Assembly (NCBI GenBank): GCA_964035575.1 | Contig: OZ037920.1 | Coordinates: 434,001-498,000, forward strand | Direction: 5' to 3' | From: Rhynchopus sp. YZ270_cl-10 | Lineage: Eukaryota > Euglenozoa > Diplonemea > Diplonemida > Diplonemidae | Length of the DNA stretch: 64,000 nucleotides | Part shown: positions 6,934 through 62,427 of the stretch, piece by piece | Position numbering within the stretch: the first letter of the stretch is position 1 | How the letters are laid out: each line of letters opens with the position of its first letter | Notes under the pieces: model-generated | Seen by the model: only the letters and a program-made list of their open reading frames with translations | The model's database searches: none | What the model was told of the DNA's origin: nothing | Translations under genes and position numbers: made by a program

Positions 6934-6975
6934 AAAGGTGACTAAGCACGAGAGGCTTAGGTTCATCTCACAAAC
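6934..6975 (+). repeat. Covarying ACGAGAG-loop hairpin (family 1), representative copy
   Basis: Structure: AAGGTGA, stem CTAAGC, loop ACGAGAG, stem GCTTAG, then GT and TCATCTT, which pairs with AAGGTGA through one G-U pair; a T-rich tail follows. Copies, all on the + strand: 6934, 7804-7846, 16904-16940, 20905-20940, 38104-38146, 45144-45200, 45244-45284, 49634-49675, 54270-54320, 54583-54620, 57221-57251, 57944-57977, 58312-58349, 58859-58890, 59538-59573, 61724-61765, 61922-61957. At 54583 the stem is CCAAGC/GCTTGG, a paired change. At 7804 the outer arm is AAGATGA, turning the G-U pair into A-U. A few copies have one mismatch. The core AGCACGAGAGG is one base from the sarcin-ricin loop core AGTACGAGAGG of LSU rRNA; descent from rRNA is unproven. 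Confidence 0.7.
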
Positions 6976-7189
6976 TTTTCTTTCTTTTTTGACGTAACAC
7001 CCATCTAACCAGTGTAACAAGAGATATTTATGCAGCACCTCTGCACAGTGCATGTGGCACAGAGAGATTAAAACGTCCTGCCGAGGTTTATTATTGAGAA
7101 TAAAGCAGCATCATTAGCGCTTCCTTTCTCAAGAAAAAAAAATGAAAAAAAAAAAAAAAACAATCCAATGTAAATACATGGATTACAAA

Positions 7190-7530
7190 AGATCTTAATT
7201 AAGATATGAGCGAAAAACACCGTTTTTTTAAGATCTTAGTGTTTTCTTAAAATTAAGTAAGATCTTAGTGTTTTGTGTTGAATATCTTAGTTTTTTTTTG
7301 TTAAGATCTTAGTTTCCACCAAAAAAAACTAAGATCTTAAAAACAAAACTAAGATCTTAAAAATAAAGTGGCTACGATCTTAGAAAAAAAAACTAAGATC
7401 TTAGAAAAAAAACTAAGATCTTAGTTTTTTGGTGTTTTTTTCCACTAAGATCTTAGTGGAAAAAAAAAACTAAGAAGATATCAAAACCCCGCTCAAAAAA
7501 AATTTCCCCTTACTAAGATCTTTTGTTTTC
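7190..7530. repeat. Irregular satellite of the palindrome CTAAGATCTTAG
   Basis: About ten to twelve AAGATCTTAG or CTAAGATC units are separated by A or T runs, with the T runs and A runs roughly mirror-arranged, so the whole stretch can fold back on itself. The spacing is irregular, unlike a classical satellite. Confidence 0.8.
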
Positions 7531-8137
7531 CATGTAAATAGTACCTCAACGATTTTTTCACTACGACTACTATTCACATCATGAAAATTCGGCTCCCATT
7601 TTTTTTTTAGATTTTACTTATTATTTACGAGAAAACTACGTAAATAGTAGGAGGGGTTTTGATGATGAGAACCCCCTTATTCTTTGCCATGCCCAAAGGC
7701 GGTGGCACCTTCGCAAAATGGAAAAAATTCCCGTGAAGTATAATTCATCTTTCAGCTTTAGGTTTAAGATTCGGCCAAACTGGCTGAGTACTTTATACGA
7801 TATAAAGATGACTAAGCACTGCAAGGCTTAAGTTCATCTTATCAAGTTTTCATGTCTCCTCCCTACCCCGTACTCAAAATTGCCCTTTGATGTACTGTAT
7901 GCACCTCAAATTCTGTGGCCTCTGCCCCCCTGAAAAACCTCTAACATCCCTCTAACCTAGAAGCTAAATTCGACCTCCACCTGTTGTCGATCGACCAAAA
8001 GAAAGATTACTCACCAATTCCTGTTTTCTCCCCCTCCCCTACTTTCCCCCTCTCCCCCCCGACAACAATTCACAGAAAGCAACACATTTAAAAACTCGTG
8101 TTTTTTTTACATTGTCAATGCACATATAGCGAAGTAC

Positions 8138-14106: not shown

Positions 14107-14110
14107 AAAT

Positions 14111-14183: not shown

Positions 14184-14233
14184 AAAAAAAAAAATTATCA
14201 TCGTGTTCATCAGCGGTTACCTAACAACGTTTT

Positions 14234-14284: not shown

Positions 14285-15869
14285 AAAAAAAACAAAAACC
14301 AAAAACAAAACAATGCCTAACGATTCCTTTGTAGGATATTCACGTCGCTCGGGGGCAGGTCAGTGGTGAAACTATTGTATCACTGCCCCGCACCACACAA
14401 AGGTTGCTGCGAAGAGAAGAGAAAAAAGCCCCTCCATTTGCTTTCCCATTGAGGAAGTGGTTTATTCAAATAATTTGGGGATTTTTTTTTTTTTTTTGTT
14501 TCTTTCGGTCACACTCAGGGTATTTCCTAATTTGCTTCCGCTTCCGGGGATTTGGAAAAAATTGGCCAGGGAAAAAATTTGCGGGGAAAAATTAGGGACG
14601 TATTTAAAGTGCTTATTTTTTGATATTTTCCCGAAAAAAGTATATTCGCTGTTCTGGATCGCTCCAATCATTCAAATAAAGCAGTTTTCGGGAATTTTTA
14701 TTTTTACCGATGTTGGGTACCGTGCGCCTGCGGCGCTGCCTGTTCCTACCAGTTTCTACAGGCAAACACTTGGCCCCTTTGCCTTACACTGACGGGTTTT
14801 GACCAAAACCAAGGACTTGTCCATTTCGTCAAATTGACCCCACCACAGAACGGACGGATTCCGGAAATGCAAATGCCGGTGTTTTCGGGCATTTTCATGT
14901 TTTCAGGATCAGGGAGAGAAAATCTGGGTTGTGGGATTTACCTGGTCCCCTTTTCCTTACACTCATTTTGACCAACACCAAGAACTTGGCCATTTCGGCA
15001 AATTGACCCCACCACAGCGCGGACGGATTCCGGAAATGCCATTCGCGGTGTGTTTTGGGCCTGAAAACCTACCGTTTCTTCAGGGAAAAAATTTGCTTCC
15101 GGATGTCGAAAATTTCCGGAAAAGTTCCGAAATTAGGAAACACCCTGGTCACACTTCTATTATTTGGTGTAGAATCGGATGTGTGCAGATGAGCGGTACA
15201 TTCATCTTTCAAGTTGCCTTTTTTTCTTCTTTTTTTTTATTTCCCTAAAAAAAAATATTGAAGTCCCATTCCGTTTCTTTCCATGATGGAACGGTGCTGA
15301 CTCATACCGCACATACCCTACCAGAAAAGAGGGGGTGTCCGCAGCACGTTTATCTGCAACAGCTTTACTCATTTATGTCCTCCATTCATCTTATCACATA
15401 TTTGTGCTCTTCCATCCGGGGCTGGCATCGTGCGTCAGTCGGAGTTATTTTATGCATCAATAACTTCATCCCCCTTTTTTTGTTACCGTTTTTTCGGTTT
15501 AACCACGCTTCATATTTCACTCAAAAAAAAATCACACTTTCCTCATTTAAGAAGGAGAGTAACGCAAGCAGAGAAGACACTATTTGATACTCCCACATGG
15601 CTGAGCACAAGAGAGTCTTAGCTTAGGTTTTTAGGTTCAGCATTAGGGGGGTCTGTTTTCGATGCATGTACCCCTATCCGGCGATAGGTGATACAATACA
15701 TCGTTTCCTAAGTTCATCATCTCAGCTTCCTTTCAAATCCAGTTGAGTGAGTTTCAACCCCCCTCGCCACTAAGTTGACTGTCTCTGTGAGGTGTGTCTG
15801 CACTCATTAAGTATCATCCTCCTTCGGGTTGCGGTCTTTGTGAGGCGTGTGTATCTCAGATTAGTTTAC

Positions 15870-16000: not shown

Positions 16001-17999
16001 TTTATCCACACCACATTCCCCTCCCCCTTTGACTGACAAAAAACTAAATGAACCAGGAGACAGAAAACCTTCCATAACAACGAACAAAAAGGAAGCAAAC
16101 GAAAACTTTTTTTATGATGAAATCATAGTGGAGCTCATCCAAGAAAAAATACAACAAATGAAACCACAACGTAAAATTAACAAGCAACACCATAACAGCT
16201 CCTCCAACACCCGATGATGTTTTATGCCCTAAGACAGAGGTGTTTCGTCTATCGGATTAGGGAGTTTTTTTTGTGTGTATGTGTTTTTGACAGCTCAGTT
16301 TGTGTCAGTGGCGATAAACGGAAAAAAGAAAAAGTTATTTTTTTTTTCTTTGTTTTCTTTTATTCACTTGTCACATTCTGAAGTCAGATTCTATTTTGTT
16401 TCTCAGTCATTTTTCTTAAGATTAACAGTTTTGTTGAAGAGATGTGCTTCCGTGAGGTGCATATATGTCCCCCCCTTTTCCTCTTCCATGAAGTCTGTCA
16501 ATTTATTTTTTATTTTTTTTTAGTTCTTCCCCCTTCCCCCCCTCCACGCTATGCTTCACACCTCTTCACTTACTCAAATAACCCCCTCTCACCTTACTGT
16601 CATGGAGGGGGTTTGACACTAAAAACAAAGTGGAAATTGCATCAACTGTGGCAACACAACCGAGACAACCTACACTACTCCAATAATTTATCAAAAAAAC
16701 AATTTTTTTCTCTTCTTTTGTTGTTCTTTTTTGGTACAGCCGGTACCAAGGTACACTGTTCACGAGAGGGCTTTGTATTTCAACTCTACTTTTTTTTTTT
16801 TAGCTAAACATCCTCACATGGAAGTGCGAGATTCAAGTTCGCGATGCCGCAGTTCCTGTCCTGCGCCGTCTTTTTTGCTTTTTCACACCTTTATTGTGTG
16901 ATCAAGGTGACGAAGCACGAGATGCTTAGGTTCATCTTATAAAACCCCCCCTTTTTTTTCTCTCTTTTCCATTGCCCGCGTCCTCCTATATACGGTGAGG
17001 CGTTTAACTGAATGGTTCATGTTCATATCCCATAGTCTCTTCCCAGCCTCGTACGACTCAGCGTTCCCTTCCCGATTTTTTTTGTCCCCCATTTTTATTT
17101 TATTATTTTTTGAGTACTGAACAACAGTCAAGATTGAGCATGATCTGACAAAGACAACAACCATTATTGATACGAACAAGGTAGATGTTCCTCTTCTTCA
17201 GTTTCCCTTCTTTTATTTTTTTTTTTTTGCTCCCTTTTTTTTTGTCTGTACTTTTTTTGGGTAAATTGCGATATCACGTATACTTTTTTTCTCTTTTTGC
17301 ATGAGCTCGACTGATATGCGTTTTAGCACGTTTCAACTGCTCTTTTTCTTCTTCTTCCGGTTTGCGATAACACGTACACAAAAAGTGTACGTGTAATCAG
17401 AAACGGAAAAAAGGTGTAGTGCTTTCGGAAATCGATCAACGACCTGTCAGCGACCTGTCAATATCGACCCCCTCCCGGAGCACCATATACGTATTCTCGC
17501 GATTTCCCCTTTCAATTTCTGTTGAAGGAAAATAATTGAAATTTGTGTGCGAACAGCGAGACACATTCATTATTCAAGGCTTCTTTGAATTTTTTTTTGG
17601 CTCATCTCGCAGACAAATAAAGGGCAGTGAAATGTGTCATTTGAGGGTTTCTTTGGAAACAAAAAAGTTGCGTTACATCGTCGGCTACTAACCACACAAT
17701 GAAGAAAGAAACAAAACAAACACACAAGATGATAAGGTACCTAGACATGAATGGGGTGATTTAGAAAACCTCTCGGCGAAAGCCAAGAGGTTTTATAAGC
17801 AAACCTCTTACCCCCCCCTCGTCTTTCGTCACATCATGTTGTCATCACTTTCCATCAAGCAAAGGAAAAGAAAAGGGTTAGGCCACAGTTTTCCCCCCCA
17901 TTTTTGGTGCTTTCTGGAGACACATTTCCCTCCCGAAGCAGGTTTATTTACTATTGTTTGTGTGAAACTGCTTGGGAGCGAAGGTCATACGCGCCCCAA

Positions 18000-18040
<41 letters not shown>

Positions 18041-20289: not shown

Positions 20290-21700
20290 TAAAACCGAGT
20301 CACATTTGTCCCTATTTCTTTGCTGAATCTTTACGAAGATGTCAAAAAAAAAAAACAAAAAACAACAAAAAAAAAAAAAAAAAAAAAAACACACACATTT
20401 CACAACGAACTTTCCCCTCCCTCCACCCATTCCATCTGGTTCTTTTCTATTAGTTTCTCCATATTACCATCCGTATGCACATTCCCCTCCTCTCAGAAAT
20501 ACTCTTATTTTTTCTCTCTCTTTTTTTTCCCCATTTGACTTTTTCTAAATTGTGTCTCGCCAGCAAATTGTACAGTGGAGGATGGCTGGTTAAGCAAGAA
20601 CAAAAAAAAAAAAAAAAAAAAATAGTATAGTGGAGCACACTCTAGGGTGGCTACACTAATACAACCAAGTTTTCAAAAAAAAAAAAAAACTATTCACAAC
20701 ATACGTTACATTACCACACCTCCCCCCCTTTCACACAATTCCCAATATTCTCCCCATTCTAGGATCTGTCTGCGTACAAAAAAAGATAGTAAAAAAAAAA
20801 GCCTTTCACGTCTTCTTCGCAGCCTTTTCCAAAACACATAGCGGAAATACGGTGTTGTGCACACCAAAATACGCAGTTTTTTTTCTCTTTTCTTTTCCTC
20901 CATTTGACTCAGCACAGCGAGACTTATGGTTTCCATCTTACCTTTTTTTTTTGACGTTGTACGATAACGTTTTCTGGTCAAAGGTGACGAAAGCACCCAT
21001 AGCAAAGCTTTACGGTTCCTTCTTGACTAAGTTTTTCTCTTTCCCCCCCTCTCTCTATCGCGCCGTATTGGGGGTGGGAGATTCCGTTACGGAAAAAAAG
21101 AAAATAATAACAAAAGTCCACTAAGGAAACTAGGTCAGCCTTTTGTAGAATTCTGCAAAAAACAGCACGCTTTCTCCCCCCAATTTTTTTTTTTTTTTTT
21201 TTTTTTTGGTACACTGTCACGAGAGGGCTTTGTATTTCAAGTCAATTTTTTTTTTTCTCATCCAATAACCCGCATCCGGTTGTCTGGTGAGGGGTTTGGA
21301 ATTTTTAACTTCTGGATGTTCACCCTATGGAGGGTTATCCAAGATTCAAGTTATTTTTGATTTTATTTTTTTCACTATTCTCACGAGTGTGTTTTCATTG
21401 AGGGGGGACAGAAGGGGTGCGTACGTAACCCCATATCTTTCTGTGGTTGTCGATAAAAAAGTAACTAAACTAAAGCAAATGCAAAAAAAAGAGGTCAAAG
21501 GGGGGGTAAGGAGCCCCGCCTGTGTATGAGTTATTTAAAAGTTAAAAACGCTTCCACCCCCTTTCCCTTTTTTCTTACGTCTGAGGGTGCTAGTTGTCGA
21601 AGGGTATGGTCGCTTGAGTTGCAGTTTGTGTTTCAGCACCGTTGCTCTGCTTCCGTAGTAGTCGTAAGAGAGATCCTGATTCCAGCGTGGTTTGAGTTAT
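20290..21700. other. Intergenic; short repeats, no gene
   Basis: A/T-run DNA with a family 3 unit (20622-20677), family 1-like hairpin (20905-20940), family 4 hairpin (21208-21246) and family 5 unit (21269-21310). No protein gene or tRNA seen. Confidence 0.5.
21208..21246 (+). repeat. ACGAGAG-loop hairpin (family 4), representative copy
   Basis: GGTACACTGTC, loop ACGAGAG, GGCTTTGTATTTC, then AAGTCAA and a T run. The arms pair as six outer base pairs (two of them G-U), a 2x2 internal loop and three inner pairs. Copies: 4683-4725, 6304-6350, 16748-16790, 21208-21246, 30843-30883, 41073-41115, 44948-44995, 57136-57172; all + strand. It shares its loop with family 1 although the stems differ. 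Confidence 0.65.
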
Positions 21701-23036: not shown

Positions 23037-23191
23037 CAACACTCTAATTTTTGTTTAATTTTCCACTGACTTCCTCCCACCCCACCACCACCCCCTCTTC
23101 CCTCCAGGGTGTTGGACAAAACAAACATAACGACCGTGCACTTTGTGCACACACCACACAACACTACCTCCCCCCTCCCCCTTTTGACACA

Positions 23192-30526: not shown

Positions 30527-33500
30527 TTTATAAAAGAAACGAAAAATTGCTGATGGTGATTGTTTAAAATATTGGGTGTGTGTTGTGTGTATGTTTATAT
30601 TTTTTGACATTTTTTTTTGTTTTTGTTGTTGTCGTTGGTAGAGGGAGGAGGGAGAGGGAACGGGGAGGGGGGTTTTTTTTGTTTGCAACGTTTTGTGTTG
30701 GTTTTTTCTCTCTCTCTCTTTTTTTCTCTGCGCACTTTTCCTTTTCTGTTTTTTTTGTACTGTTTCTTATTTGATTTTTCTGTGTAAAAAAGGGACAACG
30801 ATACTTAAAATTTCAGAGTCCTTTTCCTGAGTGTTTTTTTAAAGGTACATTGTCACGAGAGGGCTTTGTATTTCAAGTCAACCTTTTTTTTCTCTTCCAA
30901 ACAGTGAAGACTGTTTGGTATGGTGGTTGCACTGATCCCGACAGAGTATCAAAATCAAAAAAAAGGGGGGAAAAATATAGTGAACGACTTTTCGAAAAGT
31001 AGAGTGTGTTGTACGTAACCTCAAGAATTTAGCGCAAAGAAGAGAAAATGGAAATGAACAACATAAAAAAAAACACTGTGCGTATGTGTGTGGTGCAAAA
31101 CCACTCTCTCCGGTTCGATGAGAACCAATAACGTTATGTGGGGGGTATCACACAAAGTTTTCGCTCTCCCTCTCTCTTTTTTCCACCCGAAAAAAGAAAA
31201 GAAAAAGAAAAAAATAGTATGGTGGAGCTCATCCTCGGGTGCCTACACTAATACAATGAAGTTTTCAAAAAAAAAAATAAGCAGTGGATATTGCACAACT
31301 GTGGCAACACAACTGAGGCAACCTACACTACTCCAACAATTTGTCTAAAAAAAAAAAAGAAAAAAAAGGGAAAAAGGAAGAAGTTGGAGTTTGCATCGAT
31401 CGGCAACTGCACTATTCCTGTTCTTTCATCGAAAAGAAGGAGAAGAAGGAAGAAGGAAAGAGCTAGCACAAGCTATTTTCCTTTTTTTTTGTTATTGTGT
31501 AGAAAATTAGAAAAAAAATTTTTTGTTTGTTTGTGTTTTTTTATTGACATCGAATTTTGTAGATTGTTTCCCCCCCCACAAAAAAATGTGGGGCAAAAAT
31601 AAACGCCACGTTATTCTTGACTTTTCTTTCAAAAAAAGAGATCTGTCATTTTTTTCTTCCTTCTTTTCTTTTTTTTGACTGGGTGGAGACAAGGTGGAGT
31701 TTGGTAGGTAACAGGGCTTAAAAGCGGGGCTCTCAGCCTTTTATGGACTTACACACGGTGATGTCCTGTGTTCACCTTTCTCCCTCTCCAATGTCTTCAC
31801 CTGTACGATGTGTTTTAGAAAGTCCTTAACCCCATCCCTCTTCGTTGCGATGTTTTTTTTTTTATTATGGGTTTGTTATTTCCTGATCACCACCATATTT
31901 CCCTTCTTAGACACTCAATGTTGAGCGAGGGGGGTTGTTTCTTTTACTTTTTTTTTTTGGAGCATTTGTTTGACATTTTTCTTTGTGAAGTGTAAAAAAA
32001 AAAAATCATCGCGTTATGTCTGCGGTGACATAAAAGTGGTTAGTATAGTGAAGCGCACACAAAAGGGTGGCTACACTAATACAACCAAGTTTTCAAAAAA
32101 AAAGAGTTGACAGTGGAGCCCTGCATAGGTGGCAACTACACTATTCCAACAATTTTTCAAAAAAAAAAAAAAAACAGGAAAGAAGTACCGGGAGTGTTCC
32201 ACACTCGCGAGAAACTTAGCCTGGTAAAAAAAGGTATTCTTTTTTCCATAAAAATTGCTTTCAAGGGTTCAAGGACGATTGACGTCTATACCTTCCGTAC
32301 AAAAGGCTTTGACCAACATTGAGTACAAACCCTAGGCTCCCCAAGCGGGTTCTTAGGCGATTGTCGACACAGCAAATGATGGAGGATTGCACAAGGCGGC
32401 AAAAAAGGCTGATGTGCGGTACTCCAATACCATTTTTATTTTTATTTTATTTTTCAAAATAAAACCTCCCGCCCCCGCCCCCAAGCCAGATTGGGTCTTG
32501 GGTAGTTGTCAATAGGACCGAATTTTTTTTCTCTCCTCCCCCGGTGCCTTTCGTCTGTCGGTACTCCCGGTGAGGCGTTTGCACTTTCAACTTTTATTTT
32601 TATTTTTAGAGGCTTTCCCTTTTCCCCCCCACACCCTAGGATAGTTTTTTTTTTTATTTTTCGTAGATCTTCGCTTGTTTGTTTTCAGTCTATATTTTTT
32701 TTTTTTTGAGGAGTGGGAGGGAATGTGGTGGTGGGTGGTTGTGGTGCTGGTGTGTGTGGGTGTAGGGTCCAAAATATCAACTCCGATGTTTTATTTCTTT
32801 CTTCAAAAGCAAGGGTACATTTTTTGCACCCTCTTTGCATTCTTTTTTGTTGCATTCCTGGGGAGTCGAATAGTGAGAATAGTAAGAAAAGAATGTACAT
32901 GAAATGATTTTTTCAATGCCTGCGTTCCCGCCCGGTATACGGTGGTGCGTTTGCACACTTTCAATTTCTCTTTCTTACGTGGTTTCTGTTAAAAAAAATA
33001 AAATTGCCACACAAAAGAAATCATCGCGCTCGTCTGCGGTGACGTAAAAATGTTTAGTACAGTGTAGCACACTCTAGGGTGGCTACACTAATACAACCAA
33101 GTTTTCAACAAAAAAATATAGTTGTCGTTTTTCCCACCAAAAGACAGCTGAAAAATCGCTGGGGAAGAATGGTATGCAGGGAGAGGGGGAAAGGGAATGC
33201 GGAAGGGGAAGGAGGGAGATCATGTTGAGTTGAGTTGAGTGTTCACTGCACTACCCCCCTCGGCTATCAGAGGGGGTGGGGGTGGGGGTGTGTCAACAGG
33301 ATTCAATATTCATTTTTTTTTTTCTCTTGAAATTTGTGCTGAATTTTCAAAAAAAAGAGGCATTCTTTTTTGTCGTTTGTTTGTGTTTTTTTTTGAATTT
33401 TTTTTTGGATTGTATTGTTTCTATCGATTATATTTGAAGCATCGGTACGTCTGCTCGTCACGCAAACGTTACAAATAAAAACTGCAAAAACTGGAAGTAT

Positions 33501-37691: not shown

Positions 37692-38436
37692 GTATTGACA
37701 GAGGGGAGGGGTCTGTACAGTAGGTTGCGTCTTTGGAAAGCACAGAGAGAAAAATCATTGTGGAGCAAAGGCTAGGGTGTCTACACTAATAGTACCAAGT
37801 TTTCAAAAAGCATAAACTGTACCCGAATTTTGTGTATACACGAATGGTGCAGATTCGGACCTTGTAAAGAGGCAATACCAAACGATGCTGTGCTGAAGAG
37901 TCTACAAGGAGGAAACCACTGCAAGCATTGTTATGAAGGCTTCTAATGTGTGGGATGGGAGGGTGGTGGGAGAAAATTATGGGGAAGGAATAGTATGTGG
38001 GAAAACCATGTTTTTTTTCTCCCTGTGCTCGCAGGTCGGTGTTGCATTGCTGTGTCTCCACCGGGTTTGTGAGCGGTGCAGATGGTTCTTATGTGATGGT
38101 GAGTAAGGTGACTAGGCATGTGAGGCTTAGGGGTTAGGGTTCATATAAGCAAACTTATTTTTTCGTTCGATAGTCTGCATTTGGGACAGCTTTGGTAGAG
38201 ATTGCACAGAGCCTGCCTTGAGAGGTGTTCTGTATGTGATCAAATTCACTTTCTTTGGCAGATGTGTGTGTGTCTGGGATGCACATCTTTAAGTTGTGCC
38301 TTCTTGTAGGGAAGGTGTCAAAGGTAGGGCACGGTGCAATGCCTTGTGACAACAAAAAAAAGAGAGAGAGAAGAGCATCAAAGAAGCCCCACCCTTTTAT
38401 TTTTTGTATAGTTGCCAACTGTATCTGCAGTCCCCG

Positions 38437-39245
38437 CAGTTGCCTTTTCTGTGCTGAGCATGATGAGCAATACACCACACAAACAAAAGTGTGCCTGAAG
38501 GCTTCTGCCCTTTGATGTCTGCAACAAGTATTCTCGGGTCTCAACAATCTGAACAGCACAACATCATCGAGAAGTATTTTGTTCTTTCGTGAAGAAAGCA
38601 CAGGTGCCACGGAAGTCCCCTTCCTCTTAGGGACAGTCTTCCACCAGTCCTCGTTGCGAGACGGATGTTTTCTCTGGAGTGAGTGTTGATCAGCAAAAAG
38701 GCGTGTCTTCATAGTCCCTCACGTGTGCCCAACTTACAGCAAATGGGCGTGAGGTCTCCCAAGGGCGCAAGAAAAGATCACATCACATCACATCACACTC
38801 AAAATGATGACAGTTTTTCATCTGGATCCAACACCTACCCCTTTGTGGGGCTGACGATACACTGAAAATCAAAACGAGCTTTTTAACAGTCTGAACACCA
38901 CCCCCACCACACACCACTTCCAAGAAAGATGATGAGAACATACTAAGCAACGTCTGTGTTTCACATGGATACTTTTATGAGTTAAACGCTTTTGTATTTT
39001 TCGGGTTCCAAATAGTTCGAGCATGATGAGTAATACACTGCACGACAAAAGTGTGCCTGAAGGCTTCTGCCCTTTGATGTCTACAACAAGTATTCTCGGG
39101 TCCCAATCTGAACAGCACATCATCAGAAGTCTTTTGTTCTTCCCTCAAAGACAGGACAGGTGCCACGGAAGTCCCCTTCCTCTTAGGGACAGTCTTCCAC
39201 CAGTCCTCGTTGCGAGACAAGGATGTTTTCTCTGAAGTGAATGTC
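38437..39245 (+). promoter_or_regulatory. Modular repeat cassette upstream of RPAC2
   Basis: Module order A, B with its 3' extension, C, E, A, B. The last B ends 138-150 bp before the RPAC2 start codon. Compared with the kinase cassette it lacks D and one B-C pair. Sequence is near identical in each module, with small insertions and deletions. Confidence 0.6.
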
Positions 39246-40030: not shown

Positions 40031-41204
40031 TTTTATTATTATTATTTTTTGCAATCAAGTGATCAAGTGGGGTGGGGTGGGGTAGGGTAGGGTAGGGTGG
40101 GTGGAGGGGGGGGTAATGGGGAAATATTCAAAAGGTTTCGAATATGGGCTTTGGTTTGGTTATGTTTGGTATAGGGGGGTGGGGTGGGGTGGGGTGTGCT
40201 TCGGAAGAGTTGGGTTGTCTCTGTGTGTCTGTTCTGGCCGTCTTTCCAGGGTTTTATTTTTATTTTTATTTTTATTTTATTTTTTAAACCGTGTGCATTG
40301 CCAATGAAGTGCTCTTTGGAAGGTCGAGAATTCGAAGGGAAACAATGCCTTGTGTCCGCCGATGCACGGTGAGACGCTCTTTTGCACTTTCAAATTCTCT
40401 ATTTTTCCTTTTTTTCTCCTTCCGTTTTTAAAGATATGCCACACAGATTTTTTTACCCCACGAAAAGGCGCGGATAGGCGCGTATGTGGTCCTATTCGGT
40501 CCTATACTCGGGGTACAAATCAGGTGGTTGTGCACACGAGAGTCACATTCATCTTAATTTATTTTCCCCTCTTTTTCCCGCACCTAATCTGCACACTCGA
40601 TTTGCCATGCCACATCCCCACCTCCCCTCCCCTCCCTCCGTCTTACCCAATCACCGCGTTGGGGAGGTGGGTGCATATCTCATGACAAGGTGTAAACGGT
40701 TACGGTCCACATACGGCAGGAATACAGGAATTATTTTAAAAGGCCACAGCACACAGAGAGAGCCTTCTCTTTTGTTCTCCTTTTTTTCTTTTGGAATGAA
40801 AAAAAAAAAGAAAATTTGATTCTATTTTCTTGAACCCACACCCACCACTCTCTGCCTTCTTGTATCTACCCCACTCCACTTAGTGGCACACTTCTTTCCT
40901 ACATAGCTCCAAGGTGTGACTTTAGACCCTTCTTCACCGGCTGTCTGTGCCATCTGGAGGGTGCATCACCATGACCGAGATTTGCTTCCATTTGTCTGAA
41001 CAGATGTAAACCACGAAATGAATGTAGGACTGCATGGCTGGGGTCCACCCCGGTACAGCCGGTCATGTTCCAAGGTACACTGTCGCGAGCGGGCTGTTGT
41101 ATTTTACGTCAACTTTATTTCTCCCCTCTTTGTCCCGTATCCTCCCCTTTCTCTTCCCCCTTTAAAAATAACCACATTCCACTTTCAGACAGAAACAACT
41201 AAAA
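40031..41204. other. Intergenic; G-rich tract and hairpin repeats
   Basis: GGGGT/TAGGG repeats at 40068-40120 and GGGGT at 40174-40200 can form G-quadruplexes. A family 5 unit lies at 40347-40400 and a family 4 hairpin at 41073-41115. Just before the first eL41 gene is a pyrimidine-rich stretch ending CACTTTCAG (41180-41188). Confidence 0.6.
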
Positions 41205-44892: not shown

Positions 44893-45605
44893 TGGAATTA
44901 AAGGGGGAGGGAGGGGGGGTTTTGTTGTTGCATGTGGTCATACTGAGTACAGTGGACAGTGTTCACGAGAGGGCTTTTGTATTTCAACTCTACTTTTGTT
45001 TTCCCCATTGTCTACTCCTGAGGGAGAAGGAGGAGAATAAGCTTTCAGAAGCTCTTTTCTTTTGTGCTTTCATCTGGATGGCTGTCACATTGTACAGTAG
45101 GTCAGTCAATCGGAGGTGCATAAACTACCATTTTATTCAGTAGAAGGTGACTAAACTAAACTAACCCAACTAAGCACAGAGAGGCTCAGGTTCATCTCTA
45201 AAAGTTTCTTTTGCGCAGCTGTTGCTCCGCGATAACGAATATGATAAGGTGACTAAGCAACGAGAGGCTTAGGGTTTCATCTTATAAACTTTTCTTCTTT
45301 GATTCGTGAAGATTTTCATTTTTGCGCAGAGGGGGGAGAATGTTTCACCTTACCCTAGCTCCCCAGGGCGTTGTAGCAAATTGAGTGCGAACCAAAAGGT
45401 TAAGCAAACTTAATGTGTAGCTCTGTAGGGCACAACGTGGTACACAAATTCGAACGATTTATAGAATTAACAAAAAAAAAGGAAATGGGAAAACATTTCG
45501 TCGTAGGCGCAGATGTTCAACGCTTGTCCGTTTCTCGAAATATATCAGATCCACGTGTTCCCACTTATTTTCATCCTTTTGATTCCTTTCCCATGGAAGC
45601 TGTCC
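44893..45605. other. Intergenic; hairpin repeats after the helical-repeat gene
   Basis: A family 4 hairpin (44948-44995), a family 7 unit (45063-45125) and two family 1 hairpins (45144-45200, with an internal duplication of CTAA-type DNA, and 45244-45284). Then unremarkable DNA up to the cassette. Confidence 0.6.
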
Positions 45606-47104: not shown

Positions 47105-47291
47105 CCGCTCTGCTCCTGCTCTTCTCGGGTTTACAGTCACCTCAACGTCACTTCACACACTACCACACTACTCTTTGCTACATTCCCTAGCCCTCCCTCC
47201 CCTCCCACCCACCCACCCACTTCCTTTACCCCACCACCCGAACAGACCTCTACCACGGTAGCGGGGCACTGCCAACACCTTACACACGACA

Positions 47292-49538: not shown

Positions 49539-49794
49539 AGAAAAAGTAGAATTCCTTTTCATCTCGGTTTGGAGAGGGGAGGGAAGGGGGGGTAGGTAGA
49601 CATGTTACGCTGGTGTACTTAATATTTTTTTTTAAATAGCTAACTAAGCATCGAGTAGCTTATGTTTCATCTTTTAAACTTTTTCTCTTTTTCTTCTTCT
49701 TCTTCCAGGCATTCCGCTAGTTTCTGGGAAATTCTAAGAAAAGGAATAAAGAAAAATGTGAAAGAATAAAAAAATCACTTGTGGTTGGGGAGGG

Positions 49795-49916: not shown

Positions 49917-50965
49917 GGGTGGGTTGCGTGTTGGGTGCTGGGGTGGGGCTTATATGTACGCTTTCTTTGCTTTTTTTTTTTGTTAGAAGGGGTTTGTTCG
50001 TTTATCTACCTTTTTATCTCTTTCCGTTGCAAAAAAATCCCACCCTGCTTTGTAGCTGTGTGTTTGCATGAGAGAAGCACAATTCATTAAAGGGGAGTTT
50101 TTTTCTTCAAAATAACTAATCAATGAGAATCTTCGCACTGTCTTTACTAATCTTTGTGCTAACCATCATTTCTTCTCCTTCTTCTCCTTCTTTTTTCTTT
50201 GATACATTGCTAGAATAGTGTAGGTTGCCTCAGTTGTGTTTGCCACAGTTGATACAATCTCTACTTTCCAACAAAGTTTCAGCGCGAATAGGCCGTCTGA
50301 ACCGTTTCCCCCCTTTTTACTGAAATGCGTTTGGCACGTTTTTCAACTACTCTTTTTTCATTTTTTCATTTTGGACTGCCCACATTCCATCTACGATGTG
50401 GGCAGGCCATTAGGGAGGGGAGGTTTTTTTTTTGGAAGGGCGGGGGCGGGGCACCGTTCTAAAATACGTATTAATACGTGAGGGGCGGATCACGTATTTT
50501 AGAACACTGGGGGCAGGGAGGGGGGGGGGTATTTCTGTTTATTAATGCAACGATGTCTTGAAAGCAGCTGTGGGTGTTCCTTAGAGAACGGAACGTTGCG
50601 CATATGTGTATGAAGAGCGGTGCCATCTTACAAGGCAGCTTCATAACTATTAAGATGGATGTGGACAACGAGAGAGGCACACACACACTTCATCTGACAA
50701 AGTTTTCGTTTTTTTTTCTTTCTTCTTTGTTTTTTTTGTACAGAAACGGTTAAGGTTTTGCTTCTCTAACCCCCCATCACCACTTTCCCCTCCCCCGCTA
50801 TGGCCTCCCCCATCCGATACACACCTTGGATGTCCTTAAGAAAAAAAAAAATGCCTAAACCTCATGTTTCCTTGATATAAACCTCAAAATGGACGTCTAC
50901 TACTGCATTGTGGGTGTACCTCAACTCTGTTCGCGGGAGGAATTTTTTTTTTTTTTTGTATTTCA

Positions 50966-54109: not shown

Positions 54110-55270
54110 AGAAAAAATAGGAGAAGAAAGAGAAAGCCTCACTCTCCGCTAATAGAAAGACTGGAATAGAAGTTTGGGCCGCGAGAGGAAGGAGAGAAAA
54201 AAAAAAATGCTGCGTTTTTTGTTGCGTCGACAATCACCTGCTAGTGGATCTGTACTCTTTTTTTTCTTAGGTGACGGTGACCTAAGCACAGAGAGGCTTA
54301 GGTTAGGGTCATATTATAAACTTTTTTTTCCTCCCCCCCTTCAAGGGAAATTGATATTGTGTGTCTTGCGTCCAGAGAGTCGTTTTGCGTTTTATATGAC
54401 TATCTTTTTGTGCGCAAAGTGAGAGAGGAGAGAGAGAGAGAGAAGGGGTGAGGGGTGAGGGTAGACGGGGCGGTGGGGGGAGGACAGGTGAGAACAGACA
54501 AAGGTGAAAAAAAAAAAATCGTGTTTTTTTTTTTTCTAACGACACATCTTGCCTCGTTAGTTTTTTTTGGTTTTGTTTTTTTAAAGGTGACCAAGCAATG
54601 AGAGGCTTGGAATTATCTTATACACATTTATTTCTCTCTTTTCCCCCCTCTACAGCTGTTGATACTGTGTTTAGGTTAGTTGTAAGGAAAACCTACGAAA
54701 CGGGAGCGAATGTACACTATTTTTTTCAAGATTCTTTCAAAAAAAAAAAAATAATGCGCAACCAAAAGGGCATCACTCATTTAGGTGTCTATAGGTTGGG
54801 CAACAGCCAAAGGTTTTTTTTATAGCAAAAACACCCAAAAAGCTAATCCTACCAAGGTGAGGAAGGGTACTTTTGGTGATTATTTGACACAAAGAAAAAA
54901 AAAAAGCAGGTGTCAATGAGTTTAGGTTTGATATATTTGCAACTAGAGTTATTGCAAATAAGGTTACGTTATGCGAGCTTGTGCACATACAGGGGGGGAA
55001 GGGGGGGCAGAAAATCTTAGAGTACAAAAAGAAATATTGGTCCACCTCCTCCTTCTTTTCTTCTTCCCTATTTTTTCCTTCTTTGTGTCCCCCCCCTAAA
55101 ACCACAATTTCAAATCATTTCACATCAAATCCACCAGACATTTTCATACACAACACCCTCTCTCTCATCCCCCCTGCGTGAACAACACAAAAGAGTTTCT
55201 TTTCTCTTTTTTCTTCGTATTTGCTTCCCCCTCCTTTTCCCTTATCTCCCCTTTTTTGTGTTAGAAAAAA
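54110..55270. other. Intergenic; two family 1 hairpins and a C/T-rich leader
   Basis: Family 1 copies at 54270-54320 and 54583-54620; the second has the compensatory stem CCAAGC/GCTTGG. The 5' flank of the next gene is a long T/C tract ending TGTGTTAG, only six A residues before the ATG, an arrangement like a trans-splice or cis-splice acceptor. Confidence 0.6.
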
Positions 55271-56092: not shown

Positions 56093-57993
56093 GGGATTAG
56101 GGTTATATTTTGGGTAACTACATACTAATTGTATGAACCCGATGTGTTTTTTTTTTTTTGAGACTCCAGAGAAAAATATATGTTTTTCGTTTGGCAAGAA
56201 AGGGGTAATTGTGCTTCGTTTCTATACCACACATACCATAAAATACCCCTCCCTCCCTACCTGTTTTTTTCCCCCCCTCACTCCGTAGCGCCACACCCGG
56301 GGTTCGATACTCCGCAGAGAGTGTCGTTTTTTACTTTCTGTTCAACATTACTACATAAAAAGAGAGATGGGATCTTTTTTTTTTTGAATATACGAGAATC
56401 GTCATATAAAAATAAAACTCTGTTTTTAGATAGTGCTTGCCGAATTACTCCCCAGATTCATTCACTCAGGGACACTAATTCGAGCGATCAACGAAAAAAC
56501 TTTCTCCCTTTTTTTCCTTGTTTTCGTTTCTTTTTACTGAATATCTATCTAAAAAAGGAAGAGTTTTATTTTTTACTGATCCCTCCCCCTCCTATGCTAT
56601 CAATTTATTGATTGCGGATGTTGAAATACTATTGGCAGGTTCTCCCATAAACACCTAATACGACGGTTTCATTCATAATTCCTGTGTATGTGAGTTGCCA
56701 CTAAGATGAAGAACAACAAAGATGATGAATCCGAAGGGAAAAAAACATCCTCCCCATTTAGAAAAGAAAACAAAAACAAAAAAAAACGTAGGGTATCAGG
56801 AGTGATACCCTTTTTTTAAAAAAAAATGATGACCCTACCCCCCTTAGTGTCATCTTTTTTTATGAATTTTTCTTTTGGAGCGGGGGTTTTTTCTCTTTGG
56901 AAAGTATTATGTTTATGAAATTCATCGTGGAGAGAAAAAGAAAGCGGGGAGGGAGGGAGGGGAGGGAAAAGGGAGAGCCAAGACAATGGGACATTAATCA
57001 AGGGATTACTGTTTATTATTATTATTTTTTTTTTTTACCCCGAATATATTACTCTAGAGTTCTCGGTAGAGGTGGGGGGGGAGTGAGGTATGCCTTTTAT
57101 GTTCATTTTTTTTCTCCCCAGATGCGTTTTTTTGTTGTAGGTCCACAGAGAGGGCCTTTGTATCTCAATTTTTGGTTTGAGGGGGTTTTTTTTTGTTTGT
57201 TTTGTTCGTTTTCTCTTAAAAAGGTGGATAAAAGGGGCTGAGATTCATCTTGGGTGCTAGCGTCCCCTACGGTGTTTGCACCTTCTTTATGTCAACCGCG
57301 AAATCGAATGGTTGGGCACTTAAAGGTACACTGTGGCTTGTCAATTTTTTTTTTTGGCGATGTGCCAAATGGGAAGGAAATCAGGCAGTTATTTAAGATG
57401 TTGCGCGACACAAAAACAGATTTTTTTTTTAAAAATCTGGTGCTTTCGGAAGTCGGTCAACGACCTGTCAATATCGACCCCCTCCCGGAGCACCATTATC
57501 GTTTAATTTTTGTGTTTTGAGTTTCGTGTTTTGAATAAAAAGAAAATATTATCAAAAGTAGTGTAGCGCACTTCATGCGTCAGTTTAGGATCAAAAAAAA
57601 GGGCTTTTTTTTTTTGTGAGATTATTCTCTGCCAAAGCACACAAGAGATTTCTTTCAGGAAAACAACCTTTATTGGCTAAAAGCCCTTGTCCCATTTATT
57701 GGAACAGGAAAAAGGTGTTCATATTTTTTTTTCCCTGCTTCCTGGTAGGGTGGGGTCTGATAATTGTCAGGGGCTATCCAAGATTCTGTTGTGTTCATTT
57801 CACCCATTATTATTATTTTTTTTTTTTTTGGATTTTTATATTATGGGTGAGGTTTGGGTTCAAATCTTAACAATTTTTTGCAATTCTCGTTTGTCCCCCT
57901 TTTTCTCCACCGAAAAAAAAACTCCCTCCCTTTTTTATTTATACTAGGTGACTAAGCACGAGAGGCTTAGGGTCATTGTATACGCGTTTCTTT

Positions 57994-58053: not shown

Positions 58054-58718
58054 AACCATTTCTTTTTTTTGGGAGGTACATGAGTGTTTTTTCTATCCAA
58101 AATTCATCTGTCATGGGGGTTTCAAAAAAAAAAGACTCTGGAGTTGAGTTGCTACATTTTCCCCCACCCCTCACCCTCACCCCCATGTTTTCTATCCACT
58201 GAACGGGGTGCTGTCTTTCGAATTGCCCTGATGTTTTTTTATTTTCATTTTTTCGAAATGTGCGTGCACAGTGTAGGCACACTCAATTCTCAATTTTTTT
58301 CCTTTTGTTTTAAAAGGTGACTAAGCAATGAGGCTTGAATGCATCTTAAAAAAAACCTTTCTTTTTCTTTTTGCACAGAAGCTTCAGAATGAAGGCAAAT
58401 AGGCGGGGGTGATGCGGAGGGAAACGGATAGGATGAGAGGGATTTTCTGACCAAAATTGTCGACCCTCCCCCTTTTTTTTTCTCTCTTCCCTTTTTTCAA
58501 TTCCTCAGAAAAAAAAGGAAAAAGAAGGAACGGAGCTAATCGTAAAAACGATCTCCAATCTGACTGCCATCTCCCTGCCTCTTTCTGTATTCTCTAGATT
58601 CCCCCTTTTTTTTTTGTGACACTGTGTGAGTTAGTACCATTTTCTTCCCCCTAATCTTTTTAACAGTGCAAAGAAACCAAGAAATGCAAAAAATTGTATT
58701 TCGACATTTGAAATGTGA

Positions 58719-58832: not shown

Positions 58833-59682
58833 AAATGTGACAGCCCCCCCCTTGCTTTCAAGGTGGCTAAGAAGAGGGGCTGAACTTTGTGTGCATTTTT
58901 TGGGGGGCACATTTTTTCAATCTCTTTTGCATTTTGTTTTTTTTTTTCCTCTCTTTTTTTTGCTATGTGCAGTATCTTCTTCCCACCAACACTACTCCTG
59001 ACCTCCTTCCCCTGTCTCCCCTCTCCCTTTCAATCTGAAAGGGCGGAAAATTTCTCTCTTCGTGTCTCGATCTTTGTGATTGTATCTGTTGATATGTTCG
59101 TTGAGATTGTTTCTTTTACAAAGAATGGGAGGAAAGGAGGGGTGACCCAAAAAAAAAAAATGTATTGCCGATAATGAGGCAACCACTCTGTGTGTCCATC
59201 CAGTACAAAAAAAGAAAACAAAAAGAAAATAGTACTCTCTTCTGAACAAAACAAAAAAAAAACAAAAAATATCTCTCTCCTCCCAAGAAATAAAAAAGCA
59301 AACAAAAACAAAAACAAAAAACGATTTCAAAAAAAAAAAAAAAAAAAATACAAAAAATAATAGTTCATCGAGCAGAAGACTTTAGAACATTTTCCTTCCT
59401 TCCATTAAAAAAAGAGAGCGAGGAGGAAGGGGACAGAGGTTCTTGCAAACGCTTCTCAGAGGTGGGGAAAAATTCATGAAAAAAAAAGAGTGGGCTGGGA
59501 TGAGTTTTGTTGTTGTCATTTTTTTTTTCTTCCACCCAAGGTGTCTGAGAATGTGAGACTTGGGGTCATCTTATCTTCACAGGGTTCTCTTCATCAGCTC
59601 TGTGCCAGTCTGTGATTTTCCTGTCTGTCGAATGAAAAGAGAGTAGAGGTTTTTCCGGTGAGGTGGAAAAGTTTTAAAAAAA

Positions 59683-60008
59683 AGCACAGGTGCCACGGAA
59701 GTCCCCTTCCTCTTAGGGACAGTCTTCCACCAGTCCTCGTTGCGAGACAAGGATGTTTTCTCTGGAGTGAGTGTTGAGCAGCAAAAAAGGCGTGTCTTCA
59801 TAGTCCCTCACGTGTGCCCAACTTACAGCAAATGGGCGTGAGGTCTCCCAAGGGCGCAAGAAAAGATCACATCATATCACATCACACTCAAAAATGATGA
59901 CAGTTTTTCATCTGGATCCAACACCTACCCCTTTGTGGGGCTGACGATACACTGAAAATCAAAACGAGCTTTTTAACAGTCTGAACACCACCTCCACCAC
60001 ACACCACC
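59683..60008 (+). promoter_or_regulatory. Short modular cassette upstream of the aspartic protease
   Basis: Holds one B with its full 3' extension, one C and the start of E; A and D are absent. It ends about 90 bp before the protease start codon. This is the minimal form of the cassette in the window and so points to B plus C as the core. Confidence 0.6.
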
Positions 60009-60097
60009 ATGTCTATTCTTCACACCTTACGACCCAACCCCACACCACCTCTCTTTGACACTCTACACCACCACCACCACTTCAAGGATATCACAAA

Positions 60098-61378
60098 ATG
60101 AACAAAATGATCACTTTGGCAGCCCTCTGCGGGGTTGCCTGCGCAGGGAGCTTTAAGAACTCCGAGGGTGTTGTTGTCTCTGACATGTTCCGCCACGTGC
60201 ACCATGAGGAGCGCAAGGTGGTGCGCCAGAGCCAGCTCGGCTCTGAGCCGATGGGCGGCAACGTGTGGCCCGTGGCGATCTACTGGGTTGAGATTGAGGT
60301 GGGCACGCCTGCACAGAAGTTCCCTGTTGCGGTGGACACTGGAAGCTACACTCTGGACATCCCTGACCACACCTGCACGACGTGCATCACGAAGTCACCC
60401 AACAACGCATTTGACAACACAAAGTCCACCACCTGCGACGCACTCCCATGCGGCCTCTCCTGCACCATCAAGGGCGGCTCTTGCAAGGACGGACAGTGCC
60501 AGTTCTCCAACACATACGAGACATGCGAGCTGAAGGACCCCACCGCACCATGCACCATCAAGGGCAAGTGGTGGAAGGACCAGGTCACCCTCGGTGGTGC
60601 CTCTGGCACTGTTGAGGTTGAGTTTGGAACGATCACCTCGCAGACAAGCAACTTCGACCAGTTCAAGAACATCGACGGTGTGGTCGGGCTTGCAGGCCCT
60701 GCAGGGGAGTCGAACGTCTTCGAGCAGCTGGTCAAGGGAGGCAAGCTCCCTGCCAACGTCTTCGCGATGTGCTTCGAGCACGGCAAGACCTCCAACGGTA
60801 CCATCACCTTCGGAGGAATTGACCCCCGCCTGCACACCGAGCCAATCCAGTACGTCCCGGACACTGGAGGCCAGGGGTTCTACTCGGTTGAGCTGAAGTC
60901 GATTGCGGTTTCGGGAAAAGCTGCGCCGGGAACTTCTTCGACAAAGGCGATTCTTGACTCTGGTACCAACATCCTTCTGCTTCCTTCCGCTATGTACGCT
61001 GCGGTCAAGAAGGAGTTCACGGACCTCTGCGACGGCGGTGCGTCGCTTCCGGGTGTGTGCAACACAACGAAGTCGATCTTCGACAAGTACTGCTATGACT
61101 ACACCCCTGAGCAGATGGCACTCTTCCCCAACGTCACCCTCGCTCTCGACAACAACGTGAACCTCAACATGTACCCCAAGGACTACCTCCTCCAGGGCGA
61201 ACCCAGCGAGTCTGCCGACGTCTACTGCCTTGGTCTCCGCGACACAGGGCACAATGGTCTCCTCATCATCGGCGACACCACCATGCAGAACTACTACATG
61301 GTCATGGACCGTACCAACGAGCAGATCGGATGGGCGAAGGTCAACCGCACCTCCTGTGGATCGATTGGCGCGCTGTGA
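60098..61378 (+). CDS. Secreted pepsin-family (A1) aspartic protease
   Basis: 426 residues. Residues 1-17 (MNKMITLAALCGVACAG) form a signal peptide, followed by a short pro-region. The mature-type fold begins near YWVEIEVGTPAQKFPVAVDT. Catalytic Asp80 (VDTGSY) and Asp287 (LDSGTN) are present with normal spacing, and VVGLAGPAG and GLLIIGDTTMQNYY match the conserved psi-loop and C-terminal strands. Extra Cys residues after the first active-site loop (CTTCITK, CDALPCGLSC, CELKDPTAPC) suggest added disulfides, as in many protist and plant A1 enzymes. It probably cleaves proteins in a lysosome-like compartment or outside the cell. The second in-frame Met (residue 4) is an alternative start. The 5' side holds the shared cassette. 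Confidence 0.93.
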   Translation: MNKMITLAALCGVACAGSFKNSEGVVVSDMFRHVHHEERKVVRQSQLGSEPMGGNVWPVAIYWVEIEVGTPAQKFPVAVDTGSYTLDIPDHTCTTCITKSPNNAFDNTKSTTCDALPCGLSCTIKGGSCKDGQCQFSNTYETCELKDPTAPCTIKGKWWKDQVTLGGASGTVEVEFGTITSQTSNFDQFKNIDGVVGLAGPAGESNVFEQLVKGGKLPANVFAMCFEHGKTSNGTITFGGIDPRLHTEPIQYVPDTGGQGFYSVELKSIAVSGKAAPGTSSTKAILDSGTNILLLPSAMYAAVKKEFTDLCDGGASLPGVCNTTKSIFDKYCYDYTPEQMALFPNVTLALDNNVNLNMYPKDYLLQGEPSESADVYCLGLRDTGHNGLLIIGDTTMQNYYMVMDRTNEQIGWAKVNRTSCGSIGAL

Positions 61379-62427
61379 GGGGGGGAAAAAAAGGTGGGAG
61401 AAAAAGAAAGTTTCGAGTGTTTTTAAAAAAAATGTGTAAATGATATCAGTATGTATAAAAACCCCCCTTTGTGCAGAACCCATCCTCGGATAGGTGATTG
61501 TCGAAACCACAAAAAAAAAATGTTTCAGCGCAAAGTGTTTTTGCGTTTGAGATTTTTTTTTAAAAAAAGCTATCTCCGGGGTTTACTAAACGTTTCTCGG
61601 TGGTCTCCTTGCCACACACCCTCTCCCTTCTTCCCCCCCTCCCTTCCCCCCCTCCTCCCGTGAAAAAAAACATGTGTGGCGTCAATGAATGGTTTTGTTT
61701 CCTCTCCTTGTATTTTGTTTTTTAGATGACGAAAAAAGCACGAGAGGCTTAGGATCATCTTATAAACTCTTCTTTTTTTTTTTGGATGTAAGATGGAATG
61801 TGTAGCCTTTGTGATACACACATCTTCCCATTTTTTTTTTTGTTTCTTTTTTGGAAAGAAATTGTTGTAAAGATATGTGTGTGCAAGAGGCATTATCGGG
61901 CAACATTTCTTTCTATTATTTCAAGGTGACTCAACGAGAGGCTTAGGTTCATCTCAGAAAACTGTTCTTTATTTTTTGCGTTTTTCTTATTTGCTCTTGT
62001 CTCCTTTTTGTATAATCGAGCAGGGTAATTAGCAGAATCAGCAGAAAGAGCAGGTGGGAAAAAAAAGGAATGGGTGTATCTGCCTATTTCCTTTGGTCTT
62101 AGAAAAAGAACACTTCCGAGAAGAACGAGAAGAAGAAAAAAAAAAGACATTTTTGTATCCTTTTACAACTTCTAACACCCGATTTTTACCCGCGCAGAGT
62201 CGCGTATCGGACCGAAAACCCGCCTGTACCCGCCTATACGCGGGTAAAAATCAGATGGTTCTACACTACCCCCAGCCTCCAAATCCACAACCAACATCAC
62301 CACCTTCCCTACAGAACCACAGCAAAAAAAAACTACACCATGCTCCCATAACAACCCCCTTTTCCCCCCCACACTTCACCCCACGAAACTATAAAGCAAA
62401 CAAAAAAATCCAATTTTTTAACGAACA
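61379..62427. other. Intergenic; two family 1 hairpins, partial family 8 unit
   Basis: Partial family 8 (61475-61508), family 1 copies (61724-61765, 61922-61957), and a small inverted repeat of ATTTTTACCCGCG / CGCGGGTAAAAAT around 62181-62250. The last 100 bp before the J-protein are C/T-rich. Confidence 0.55.

What the first reader, a model, noticed from the sequence alone, without database searches (positions are those of the whole stretch)
6934..61957. Superfamily of strand-biased hairpins with a shared ACGAGAG loop and paired stem changes
Family 1 (about 17 copies) and family 4 (8 copies) have different stems but present the same loop, ACGAGAG. Seen directly: stem CTAAGC/GCTTAG becomes CCAAGC/GCTTGG at 54583; the outer arm AAGGTGA or AAGATGA faces the same TCATCTT, so a G-U pair alternates with A-U; family 4 shows C-G to U-G, U-G to U-A and U-A to U-G changes. 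All copies found are on the + strand, like all genes. Inference: the RNA form is selected, perhaps as a small RNA, a pre-mRNA processing signal or a 3' end signal. The core AGCACGAGAGG is one base from the LSU rRNA sarcin-ricin loop core AGTACGAGAGG, so rRNA descent or mimicry is possible.
Basis: partly seen in the sequence, partly recalled or inferred. Interest (0 to 1): 0.85.

Follow-up and report, generated by a model that had tools for sequence, protein, structure and literature searches.

The report
Sense-only mobile RNA hairpins in diplonemid
A marine protist's genome is peppered with tiny copied hairpins that almost always point the same way as its genes, which suggests that their RNA form controls how they spread or what they do.

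Summary
The hairpins are real and far above chance. The genome (152 Mb, 126 contigs) looks like a diplonemid's from its spliced-leader arrays. The exact core occurs 3422 times against 98 for the reversed control. A covariance model of family 1 finds 98 hits (89 distinct) in 262 kb, all on the gene strand. Hairpin strand follows one minus-to-plus switch per contig: 2 exceptions in 295 points (shuffled mean 61) and 1 in 191 in a second set. The "ACGAGAG loop" is a bulged A plus C(GAGA)G, a GNRA tetraloop. Three families share this cap on different stems. Copies lie evenly in noncoding gaps, often between T-tracts, with no clear link to splice acceptors. Another dispersed repeat is mixed in orientation. 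Best reading: tiny non-autonomous mobile elements whose folded sense strand matters for copying and whose insertion is polar with transcription. That mechanism is inferred; no RNA data, empty site or enzyme is in hand. rRNA descent is not supported.

The parts
6933..6979 (+). F1 hairpin, exact core, near-consensus copy
   Evidence: E 1.2e-14
7803..7850 (+). F1 hairpin, cap reads GCAA (GNRA) by eye
   Evidence: E 1.1e-09; sequence
16902..16948 (+). F1 hairpin
   Evidence: E 1.1e-10
38103..38157 (+). F1 hairpin with GTGA (GNRA) cap
   Evidence: E 6.2e-05
45142..45208 (+). F1 hairpin with insert in the 5' arm
   Evidence: E 0.0021
45244..45293 (+). F1 hairpin
   Evidence: E 7.5e-13
49635..49683 (+). 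F1 hairpin, diverged
   Evidence: E 5.8e-06
54272..54325 (+). F1 hairpin, diverged
   Evidence: E 7.9e-07
54582..54629 (+). F1 hairpin with CCAAGC/GCTTGG paired stem change
   Evidence: E 3.3e-10
57943..57989 (+). F1 hairpin, exact core
   Evidence: E 1.1e-09
58312..58357 (+). F1 hairpin, diverged
   Evidence: E 2.8e-05
59536..59582 (+). F1 hairpin, cap reads GTGA by eye
   Evidence: E 3.5e-06; sequence
61721..61771 (+). F1 hairpin, exact core
   Evidence: E 9.6e-11
61921..61965 (+). F1 hairpin, shortened 5' arm
   Evidence: E 5.2e-07
4680..4714 (+). F4 hairpin inside intron 2 (4489-4761, borders read by eye) of the MatE gene
6310..6344 (+). F4 hairpin
   Evidence: 27 of 35
16749..16783 (+). 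F4 hairpin
   Evidence: 26 of 35
21206..21240 (+). F4 hairpin
   Evidence: 33 of 35
30842..30876 (+). F4 hairpin
   Evidence: 34 of 35
41072..41106 (+). F4 hairpin
   Evidence: 26 of 35
44946..44987 (+). F4 hairpin, one extra T; borders by eye
   Evidence: loop at 44965
3020..3060 (+). F5 hairpin, 11 stem pairs, GTGA cap
15178..15218 (+). F5 hairpin
   Evidence: 31 of 41
40525..40565 (+). F5 hairpin with ACGAGAG cap
50652..50695 (+). F5-like hairpin with ACGAGAG cap; borders by eye
   Evidence: loop at 50668

Best explanation
These are tiny (about 36-50 nt) non-autonomous mobile elements of a diplonemid. Each copy is read in sense inside a long polycistronic precursor and can fold into a hairpin capped by a bulged A and a C-GNRA-G tetraloop. 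Inferred: the hairpin RNA (or the same strand as single-stranded DNA) is what the copying machinery recognises. It enters T-tracts only in the direction of transcription, for example by RNA joining to U-tracts of pre-mRNA followed by reverse transcription, or by entry into the exposed non-template strand. After insertion most copies decay.
For: Exact core 3422 in the genome against 98 reversed. Model hits 98 of 98 sense, 89 of them distinct in sequence (gene strand). Six sense-biased repeat families together 143 sense, 6 antisense. Strand runs: 2 exceptions in 295 points on 45 contigs, 1 in 191 on 25 contigs in a second set. Conservation starts and stops sharply, with T-rich flanks on both sides (46 copies), although T8+ and A8+ runs are about equally common on the window's + strand (108 and 100). 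Another dispersed repeat is mixed in orientation (8-9 places per word). Loop: in decayed copies the second base differs in 20 of 51, the last A in 1 of 51. Genome-wide the second base carries 118 single changes (81 of 100 listed are transversions, some in tandem clusters) and the last A 27 (4 of 27 transversions), both in GAG context. Stem changes mostly unpaired, 92 of 100 listed, so no sign that each copy is held. Even position in gaps: F1 mean 0.52, expected error 0.05, n 29.
Against: No empty site among 287 flank pairs from 116 copies (fetched loci only). No enzyme was looked for or identified. No RNA data. Target-site duplications cannot be seen in T-tracts. The last A of the loop is rarer as a mutant than the bulged A (27 against 110) and almost fixed in decayed copies, which may mean selection on copies. 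Loose hairpin counts without the bulged A show no sense excess of other GNRA loops (one free bulge 37 sense, 32 antisense; no bulge 21 and 42).
Confidence: 0.42

Rival explanations
1. Each copy is a working RNA signal in the precursor (a binding site for an RNA-binding protein that marks non-mRNA segments, steers processing or keeps the polymerase going), spread by copying and then kept by selection.
For: Sense bias without exception among model hits, GNRA pattern and near-fixed last A in decayed copies, shared cap on different stems, covariation score above 499 of 500 shuffles.
Against: No positional preference, at most a small acceptor excess (0.44 of 91 hairpins, 0.35 of 341 T-rich controls), stems broken without compensation, a graded series of decay.
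Confidence: 0.25
2. Insertion as single-stranded DNA tied to the replication fork (as recalled for bacterial IS200/IS605 or REP hairpins). Orientation follows replication, which would run the same way as transcription if each chromosome fires from its centre.
For: One divergent switch per contig would give the same polarity for both processes; hairpin unit.
Against: Fork direction is unknown here and no HUH enzyme was looked for; the GNRA pattern is an RNA-type signature.
Confidence: 0.15
3. Insertion is unpolar and antisense copies are removed by selection, for instance because they pair with the many sense copies in one precursor.
For: The six counted families are nearly all sense.
Against: Another dispersed repeat occurs in both orientations; no antisense F1 hit remains even at E <= 1 in 262 kb.
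Confidence: 0.12
4. Splice-site element or introner: the hairpin builds or marks an intron 3' end.
For: F4 in MatE intron 2, and F1/F4 close before likely spliced-leader acceptors in L023 and L020, read by eye.
Against: Not general; element borders are not intron borders in MatE.
Confidence: 0.04
5. Fragments or mimics of the LSU rRNA sarcin-ricin loop.
For: Eight shared letters ACGAGAGG (rRNA recalled).
Against: These letters are a C(GAGA)G cap; stems and tails differ between families; no Rfam match in the window.
Confidence: 0.01

Closest known systems
REP/REPIN hairpins of bacteria (PMC3116915 seen in a search listing only; mobilisation by RAYT recalled)
   Same: Tiny hairpin units in large numbers
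   Different: Bacterial DNA elements; here a eukaryote, on the gene strand, with an RNA-type GNRA cap; no RAYT or kin was searched for
SIDER retroposons of Leishmania (PMC2689281, passages read)
   Same: Euglenozoan, dispersed in polycistronic units, orientation linked to genes
   Different: Described as extinct degenerate retroposons; sense copies about 4-fold commoner overall and antisense enriched in spacers; here no antisense F1 model hit, and sense copies in spacers
Introner elements and base-paired noncanonical introns (Amoebophrya PMC7789003, passages; diplonemids PMC12621601, passages and two sections)
   Same: Repeated or paired hairpins in protist noncoding RNA
   Different: Those concern intron ends inside genes; here hairpins lie anywhere in noncoding gaps
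MITEs (recalled)
   Same: Short, no coding capacity, inverted arms at the ends
   Different: Orientation strictly polar; arms cap a GNRA loop
LSU rRNA sarcin-ricin loop (recalled)
   Same: C(GAGA)G cap
   Different: Stems differ between families; no similarity seen beyond the cap

Membership tests
MITE / TIR DNA transposon | terminal inverted repeats | tested here: met
   AAGGTGA/TCATCTT arms at the two ends of F1
MITE / TIR DNA transposon | insertion in either orientation | tested here: not met
   98 of 98 model hits sense
MITE / TIR DNA transposon | target-site duplication | tested here: inconclusive
   T-rich flanks on both sides would hide it
Introner element | copies coincide with introns and supply splice sites | tested here: not met
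   MatE intron 2 borders lie outside F4 (by eye); even scatter in gaps; small untested acceptor excess
SIDER / LINE-derived retroposon | A-tail and a length of several hundred bases (recalled) | tested here: not met
   about 50 nt, T-rich on both sides, no A-tail
REP/IS200-IS605 type | hairpin unit | tested here: met
REP/IS200-IS605 type | HUH enzyme in the genome | not tested
Known RNA family (Rfam 15) | match at gathering score | tested here: not met
   0 in the window
LSU rRNA sarcin-ricin loop | similarity beyond the loop | tested here: inconclusive
   three different stems under one cap, but this organism's rRNA was not obtained

The most novel reading that the evidence does not exclude
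An RNA-level mobile element: a GNRA-capped hairpin RNA is joined to U-tracts of pre-mRNA, reverse transcribed and fixed in the genome, so that order 10^4 copies all read in sense. It would be a transposition route whose polarity is set by the transcript.
Probability: 0.2. Interest if true: 0.92.

Novelty: new variant of a known kind. Interest (0 to 1): 0.72.

Why it matters
A dispersed element with nearly total sense orientation over a nuclear genome is unexpected: insertion or selection must see the strand that is transcribed. The hairpins also serve as a strand marker. On the contigs tested they draw a map with a single divergent switch per chromosome unit in a diplonemid, a very species-rich and little understood group of ocean protists.

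Tried and rejected
Splice-acceptor or branch-site role: looked convincing in examples (MatE intron 2, L020, L023) but showed only a small, untested excess over controls. U2 pairing of the tail: the U2 branch region here reads GUAUUA and does not pair well with TATAAAC (by eye). 5' splice site inside GGTGACT: SL RNA and both MatE introns use GTATG. Covariation as proof: weak in A1, no clear compensation in near-perfect copies. T-tract preference as sole cause of polarity: T- and A-runs are about equally common on the window's + strand. Empty sites: none among 287 flank pairs from 116 copies in fetched loci; the output was cut, so it was repeated, where the only two near-zero gaps came from a neighbouring F1 copy in L005. 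Two apparent antisense cores (L034, L035) are chance matches without the hairpin, one inside a coding stretch. Two weak F4 hits inside coding sequence (L015, L019) are threshold noise. At looser thresholds the consensus scan does give antisense matches (24 letters: 82 and 1; 23: 95 and 3; 22: 116 and 12). Group II domain V: similar rough layout by eye, no Rfam hit.

Ascertainment: L001-L008 were returned by the exact core; L015-L028 were chosen round listed core hits; L009-L014 flank the window; L033-L036 were chosen round apparent exceptions; only L037 and L038 were chosen blind. One search includes overlapping and tandem loci; one search includes tandem units in L012 and L023 (98 hits, 89 distinct). 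Strand results hardly depend on this; conservation of the core does, hence the count on 65 hits without the exact core (gap cells set aside). One misaligned row (L038:8907) stayed in A1 and so in model R1. L012 was left out. Listings show 100 places at most; spectra for searches are from 100 of 118, 167, 164, 110, 143 and 390, counted by eye and recounted. The strand points were typed in and, in kb, collapsed within 8 kb. Gene strand rests on a home-made codon score trained on window frames. MatE introns and the acceptors in L020 and L023 were read by eye.

Papers: PMC12621601 outline, passages and sections 5 and 15; PMC7789003, PMC10161547 and PMC2689281 passages; others seen only in listings. 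Searches for a prior description; nothing like it showed in their listings. Supplements were not open to me and the library holds open-licence papers only.
Full report
The genome. The window is G000:C88:434001-498000 of a 152.4 Mb, 126-contig genome. It carries tandem spliced-leader RNA genes reading CCAACGATTTCTAAAGCTACAGTTTCTGTACTTCATTG|GTATGG (L031); the two fetched array stretches also hold U2, U4, U5, U6 and SRP RNA (L031, L032). The leader resembles that of Diplonema (recalled), so I take the organism for a diplonemid; SSU rRNA could not be obtained. 739 places match the leader's last 19 bases, as recalled, with at most one mismatch. Window genes include a WD40 protein, MatE with two GT-AG introns (4167-4338, 4489-4761, by eye), a protein kinase, an aspartyl protease and a DnaJ protein.

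The repeats. Family 1 (F1) reads AAGGTGA CTAAGC A C(GAGA)G GCTTAG GN TCATCTT ATAAACTTTTC. Family 4 (F4) reads AAGGTACA CT GTC A C(GAGA)G GGC TT TGTATTTC. I found a third family, F5: GATGAATGTGC A C(GAGA)G GCACATTCATC TTTCAAGTTTTC. F1 conservation begins and ends sharply, with T-rich flanks on both sides (46 copies).

Number. The exact core occurs 3422 times in the genome, against 98 for the pattern read backwards; a 22-letter F5 pattern occurs 390 times, control 0. The window has 14 F1 copies but only 3 exact cores, and is about twice as rich in cores as the genome, so F1 alone should number of the order of 10^4 (my estimate).

Orientation. A covariance model of F1 (R1, 60 copies) gave 98 hits at E <= 1 in 262 kb of both strands; all 98 (89 distinct) lie on the strand of the genes, with gene strand called from codon scores that do not use the hairpins. 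The consensus scan gave 76 sense and 0 antisense at 25 of 41 letters in 294 kb, overlapping loci included; below that, antisense noise appears (22 letters: 116 and 12). Exact ACGAGAG: 82 sense, 15 antisense; with three or more closing pairs 44 sense, 0 antisense. Six families together: 143 sense, 6 antisense; D16 is least strict, 14 to 2. As an internal control, another dispersed repeat (words such as TACCGTGCGCCTGC) is mixed, 4 to 5 and 4 to 4; numbers are small.

Genome-wide strand runs. Places listed for five F1 variants give 380 points after collapsing tandems. On the 45 contigs with four or more points (295 points) a single switch from minus to plus explains all but 2; shuffled strands leave 61 on average and 48 at least. 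A second set gives 1 exception in 191 points on 25 contigs; shuffled 48, least 34. The exceptions are on C1, C2 and C33. On C1 (about 1.32-1.50 Mb) and C2 (about 0.96-1.05 Mb) spliced-leader and U2 arrays lie inside the contig, so each may be two chromosome units joined; on C33 the odd point (37 kb) lies among U2 genes near the contig's left end. Elsewhere one divergent centre with outward transcription fits. Replication from the same centre would have the same polarity, so the two cannot be separated here.

RNA signature. In 65 F1 hits without the exact core (gap cells set aside), the second loop base differs in 20 of 51, the last A in 1 of 51, the third base in 4 of 50 and the first G in 9 of 50; the closing C is T in 19 of 50, which keeps a U-G pair. 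The model that found them favours the consensus, so this is supportive, not conclusive. Genome-wide single changes in near-perfect copies: first G 167 (of 100 listed A 80, C 12, T 8; a CpG site), second base 118 (of 100 listed C 44, T 37, G 19; the T include a cluster of 7 on C38), third 82 (A 61, C 11, T 10), last A 27 (G 23, C 3, T 1), bulged A 110 (of 100 listed G 76, C 13, T 11). Of these five sites only the second loop base has more transversions than transitions. As A to G is about equal at the second and fourth base in the same GAG context (about 22 and 23), I read this as GNRA variants that were themselves copied, rather than as strong selection on every copy. With a bulged A, a Y-G closing pair and at least three stem pairs, GAGA occurs 40 times sense and once antisense; single changes of it that keep GNRA 13 and 4, that break it 9 and 8. 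Without the bulged-A condition other GNRA loops show no sense excess (one free bulge 37 and 32, none 21 and 42).

Results against selection on pairing. On A1, 89.4% of cells pair (88.3% shuffled, 2 of 500 reach it), 8 cells change on both sides against 3.6 expected (11 of 500), and the covariation score is 0.112 against 0.095 (1 of 500); related copies can exceed this control without structure. Genome-wide, when T of one inner pair changes, 92 of 100 listed copies are left unpaired and 8 paired, six of these in two local clusters. Changes of its partner A (G 65, C 25, T 10 of 100; nine of the C on contig C21) resemble those of the unpaired bulged A. In F5 the Y-R pair beside the bulge is C-G 80, C.A 13, U.G 6, U-A 1 of 100 listed, no compensation beyond chance.

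Place. Hairpins are spread evenly in noncoding gaps (relative position F1 0.52, n 29, expected error 0.05; F4 0.48, n 11; F5 0.45, n 12; L012 left out). Single cases sit before splice acceptors (MatE intron 2; likely spliced-leader acceptors in L020 and L023, by eye), but an acceptor-like YAG follows 0.44 of 91 hairpins, 0.35 of 341 T-rich controls and 0.34 of 762 random places, a small excess that I did not test. Of 51 distances between neighbouring hairpins in one gap, 14 are 49-165 nt, as if new ones land in the T-rich tails of old ones (inference).

Interpretation. Sharp units at unrelated places mean copying. Broken pairs and a graded decay series suggest that most copies are not individually held. 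The GNRA pattern and sense-only orientation suggest that the sense strand, as RNA or single strand, matters in copying. T-tract targets alone do not explain polarity, since T- and A-runs are about equally common on the window's + strand, and the control repeat argues against a general genome effect. I therefore favour small non-autonomous mobile elements with insertion polar to transcription; the enzyme and the intermediate are unknown. Searches of open papers listed no such element; the passages read on diplonemids report unidirectional clusters and transposable elements (PMC10161547) and base-paired noncanonical introns (PMC12621601), which are different things.

Noticed in passing
45 contigs of G000, 25: Hairpin strands imply one divergent transcription switch per chromosome unit, arms reading outward; C1 and C2 look like two units joined at spliced-leader/U2 arrays.
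   Followed up: partly
L032 1501-1691 (-): U2 snRNA branch-recognition stretch reads GUGUAUUAUCUG where the Rfam consensus has GUGUAGUAUCUG.
   Followed up: no
L031, L032: SL RNA, U6 and SRP RNA (L031) and U2, U4, U5 and SRP RNA (L032) lie together in array stretches.
   Followed up: no
L029, L030: The two copies with the leader ending TTTATTG (not TTCATTG) look like recycled spliced-leader mRNAs before open frames (by eye).
   Followed up: no
window 14238-37816 and 5285-35440: Two A-tailed sense-biased repeats (D16, CC); antisense D16 copies lie 62 and 193 nt behind an F1 hairpin in L016 and L020, and a CC-like antisense stretch behind F1 in L018 (by eye).
   Followed up: partly
window 21840-23042, 38580-39223, 45756-47108, 59666-60007: Repeat blocks of about 90-300 nt, several standing before genes (D7, D9, D10, D11).
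   Followed up: no
L012-L014: Near-perfect tandem array of a unit of about 3.49 kb holding one coding stretch and three F1 hairpins.
   Followed up: no
window 35473-35900: Long CAC repeat inside a frame, possibly poly-histidine.
   Followed up: no
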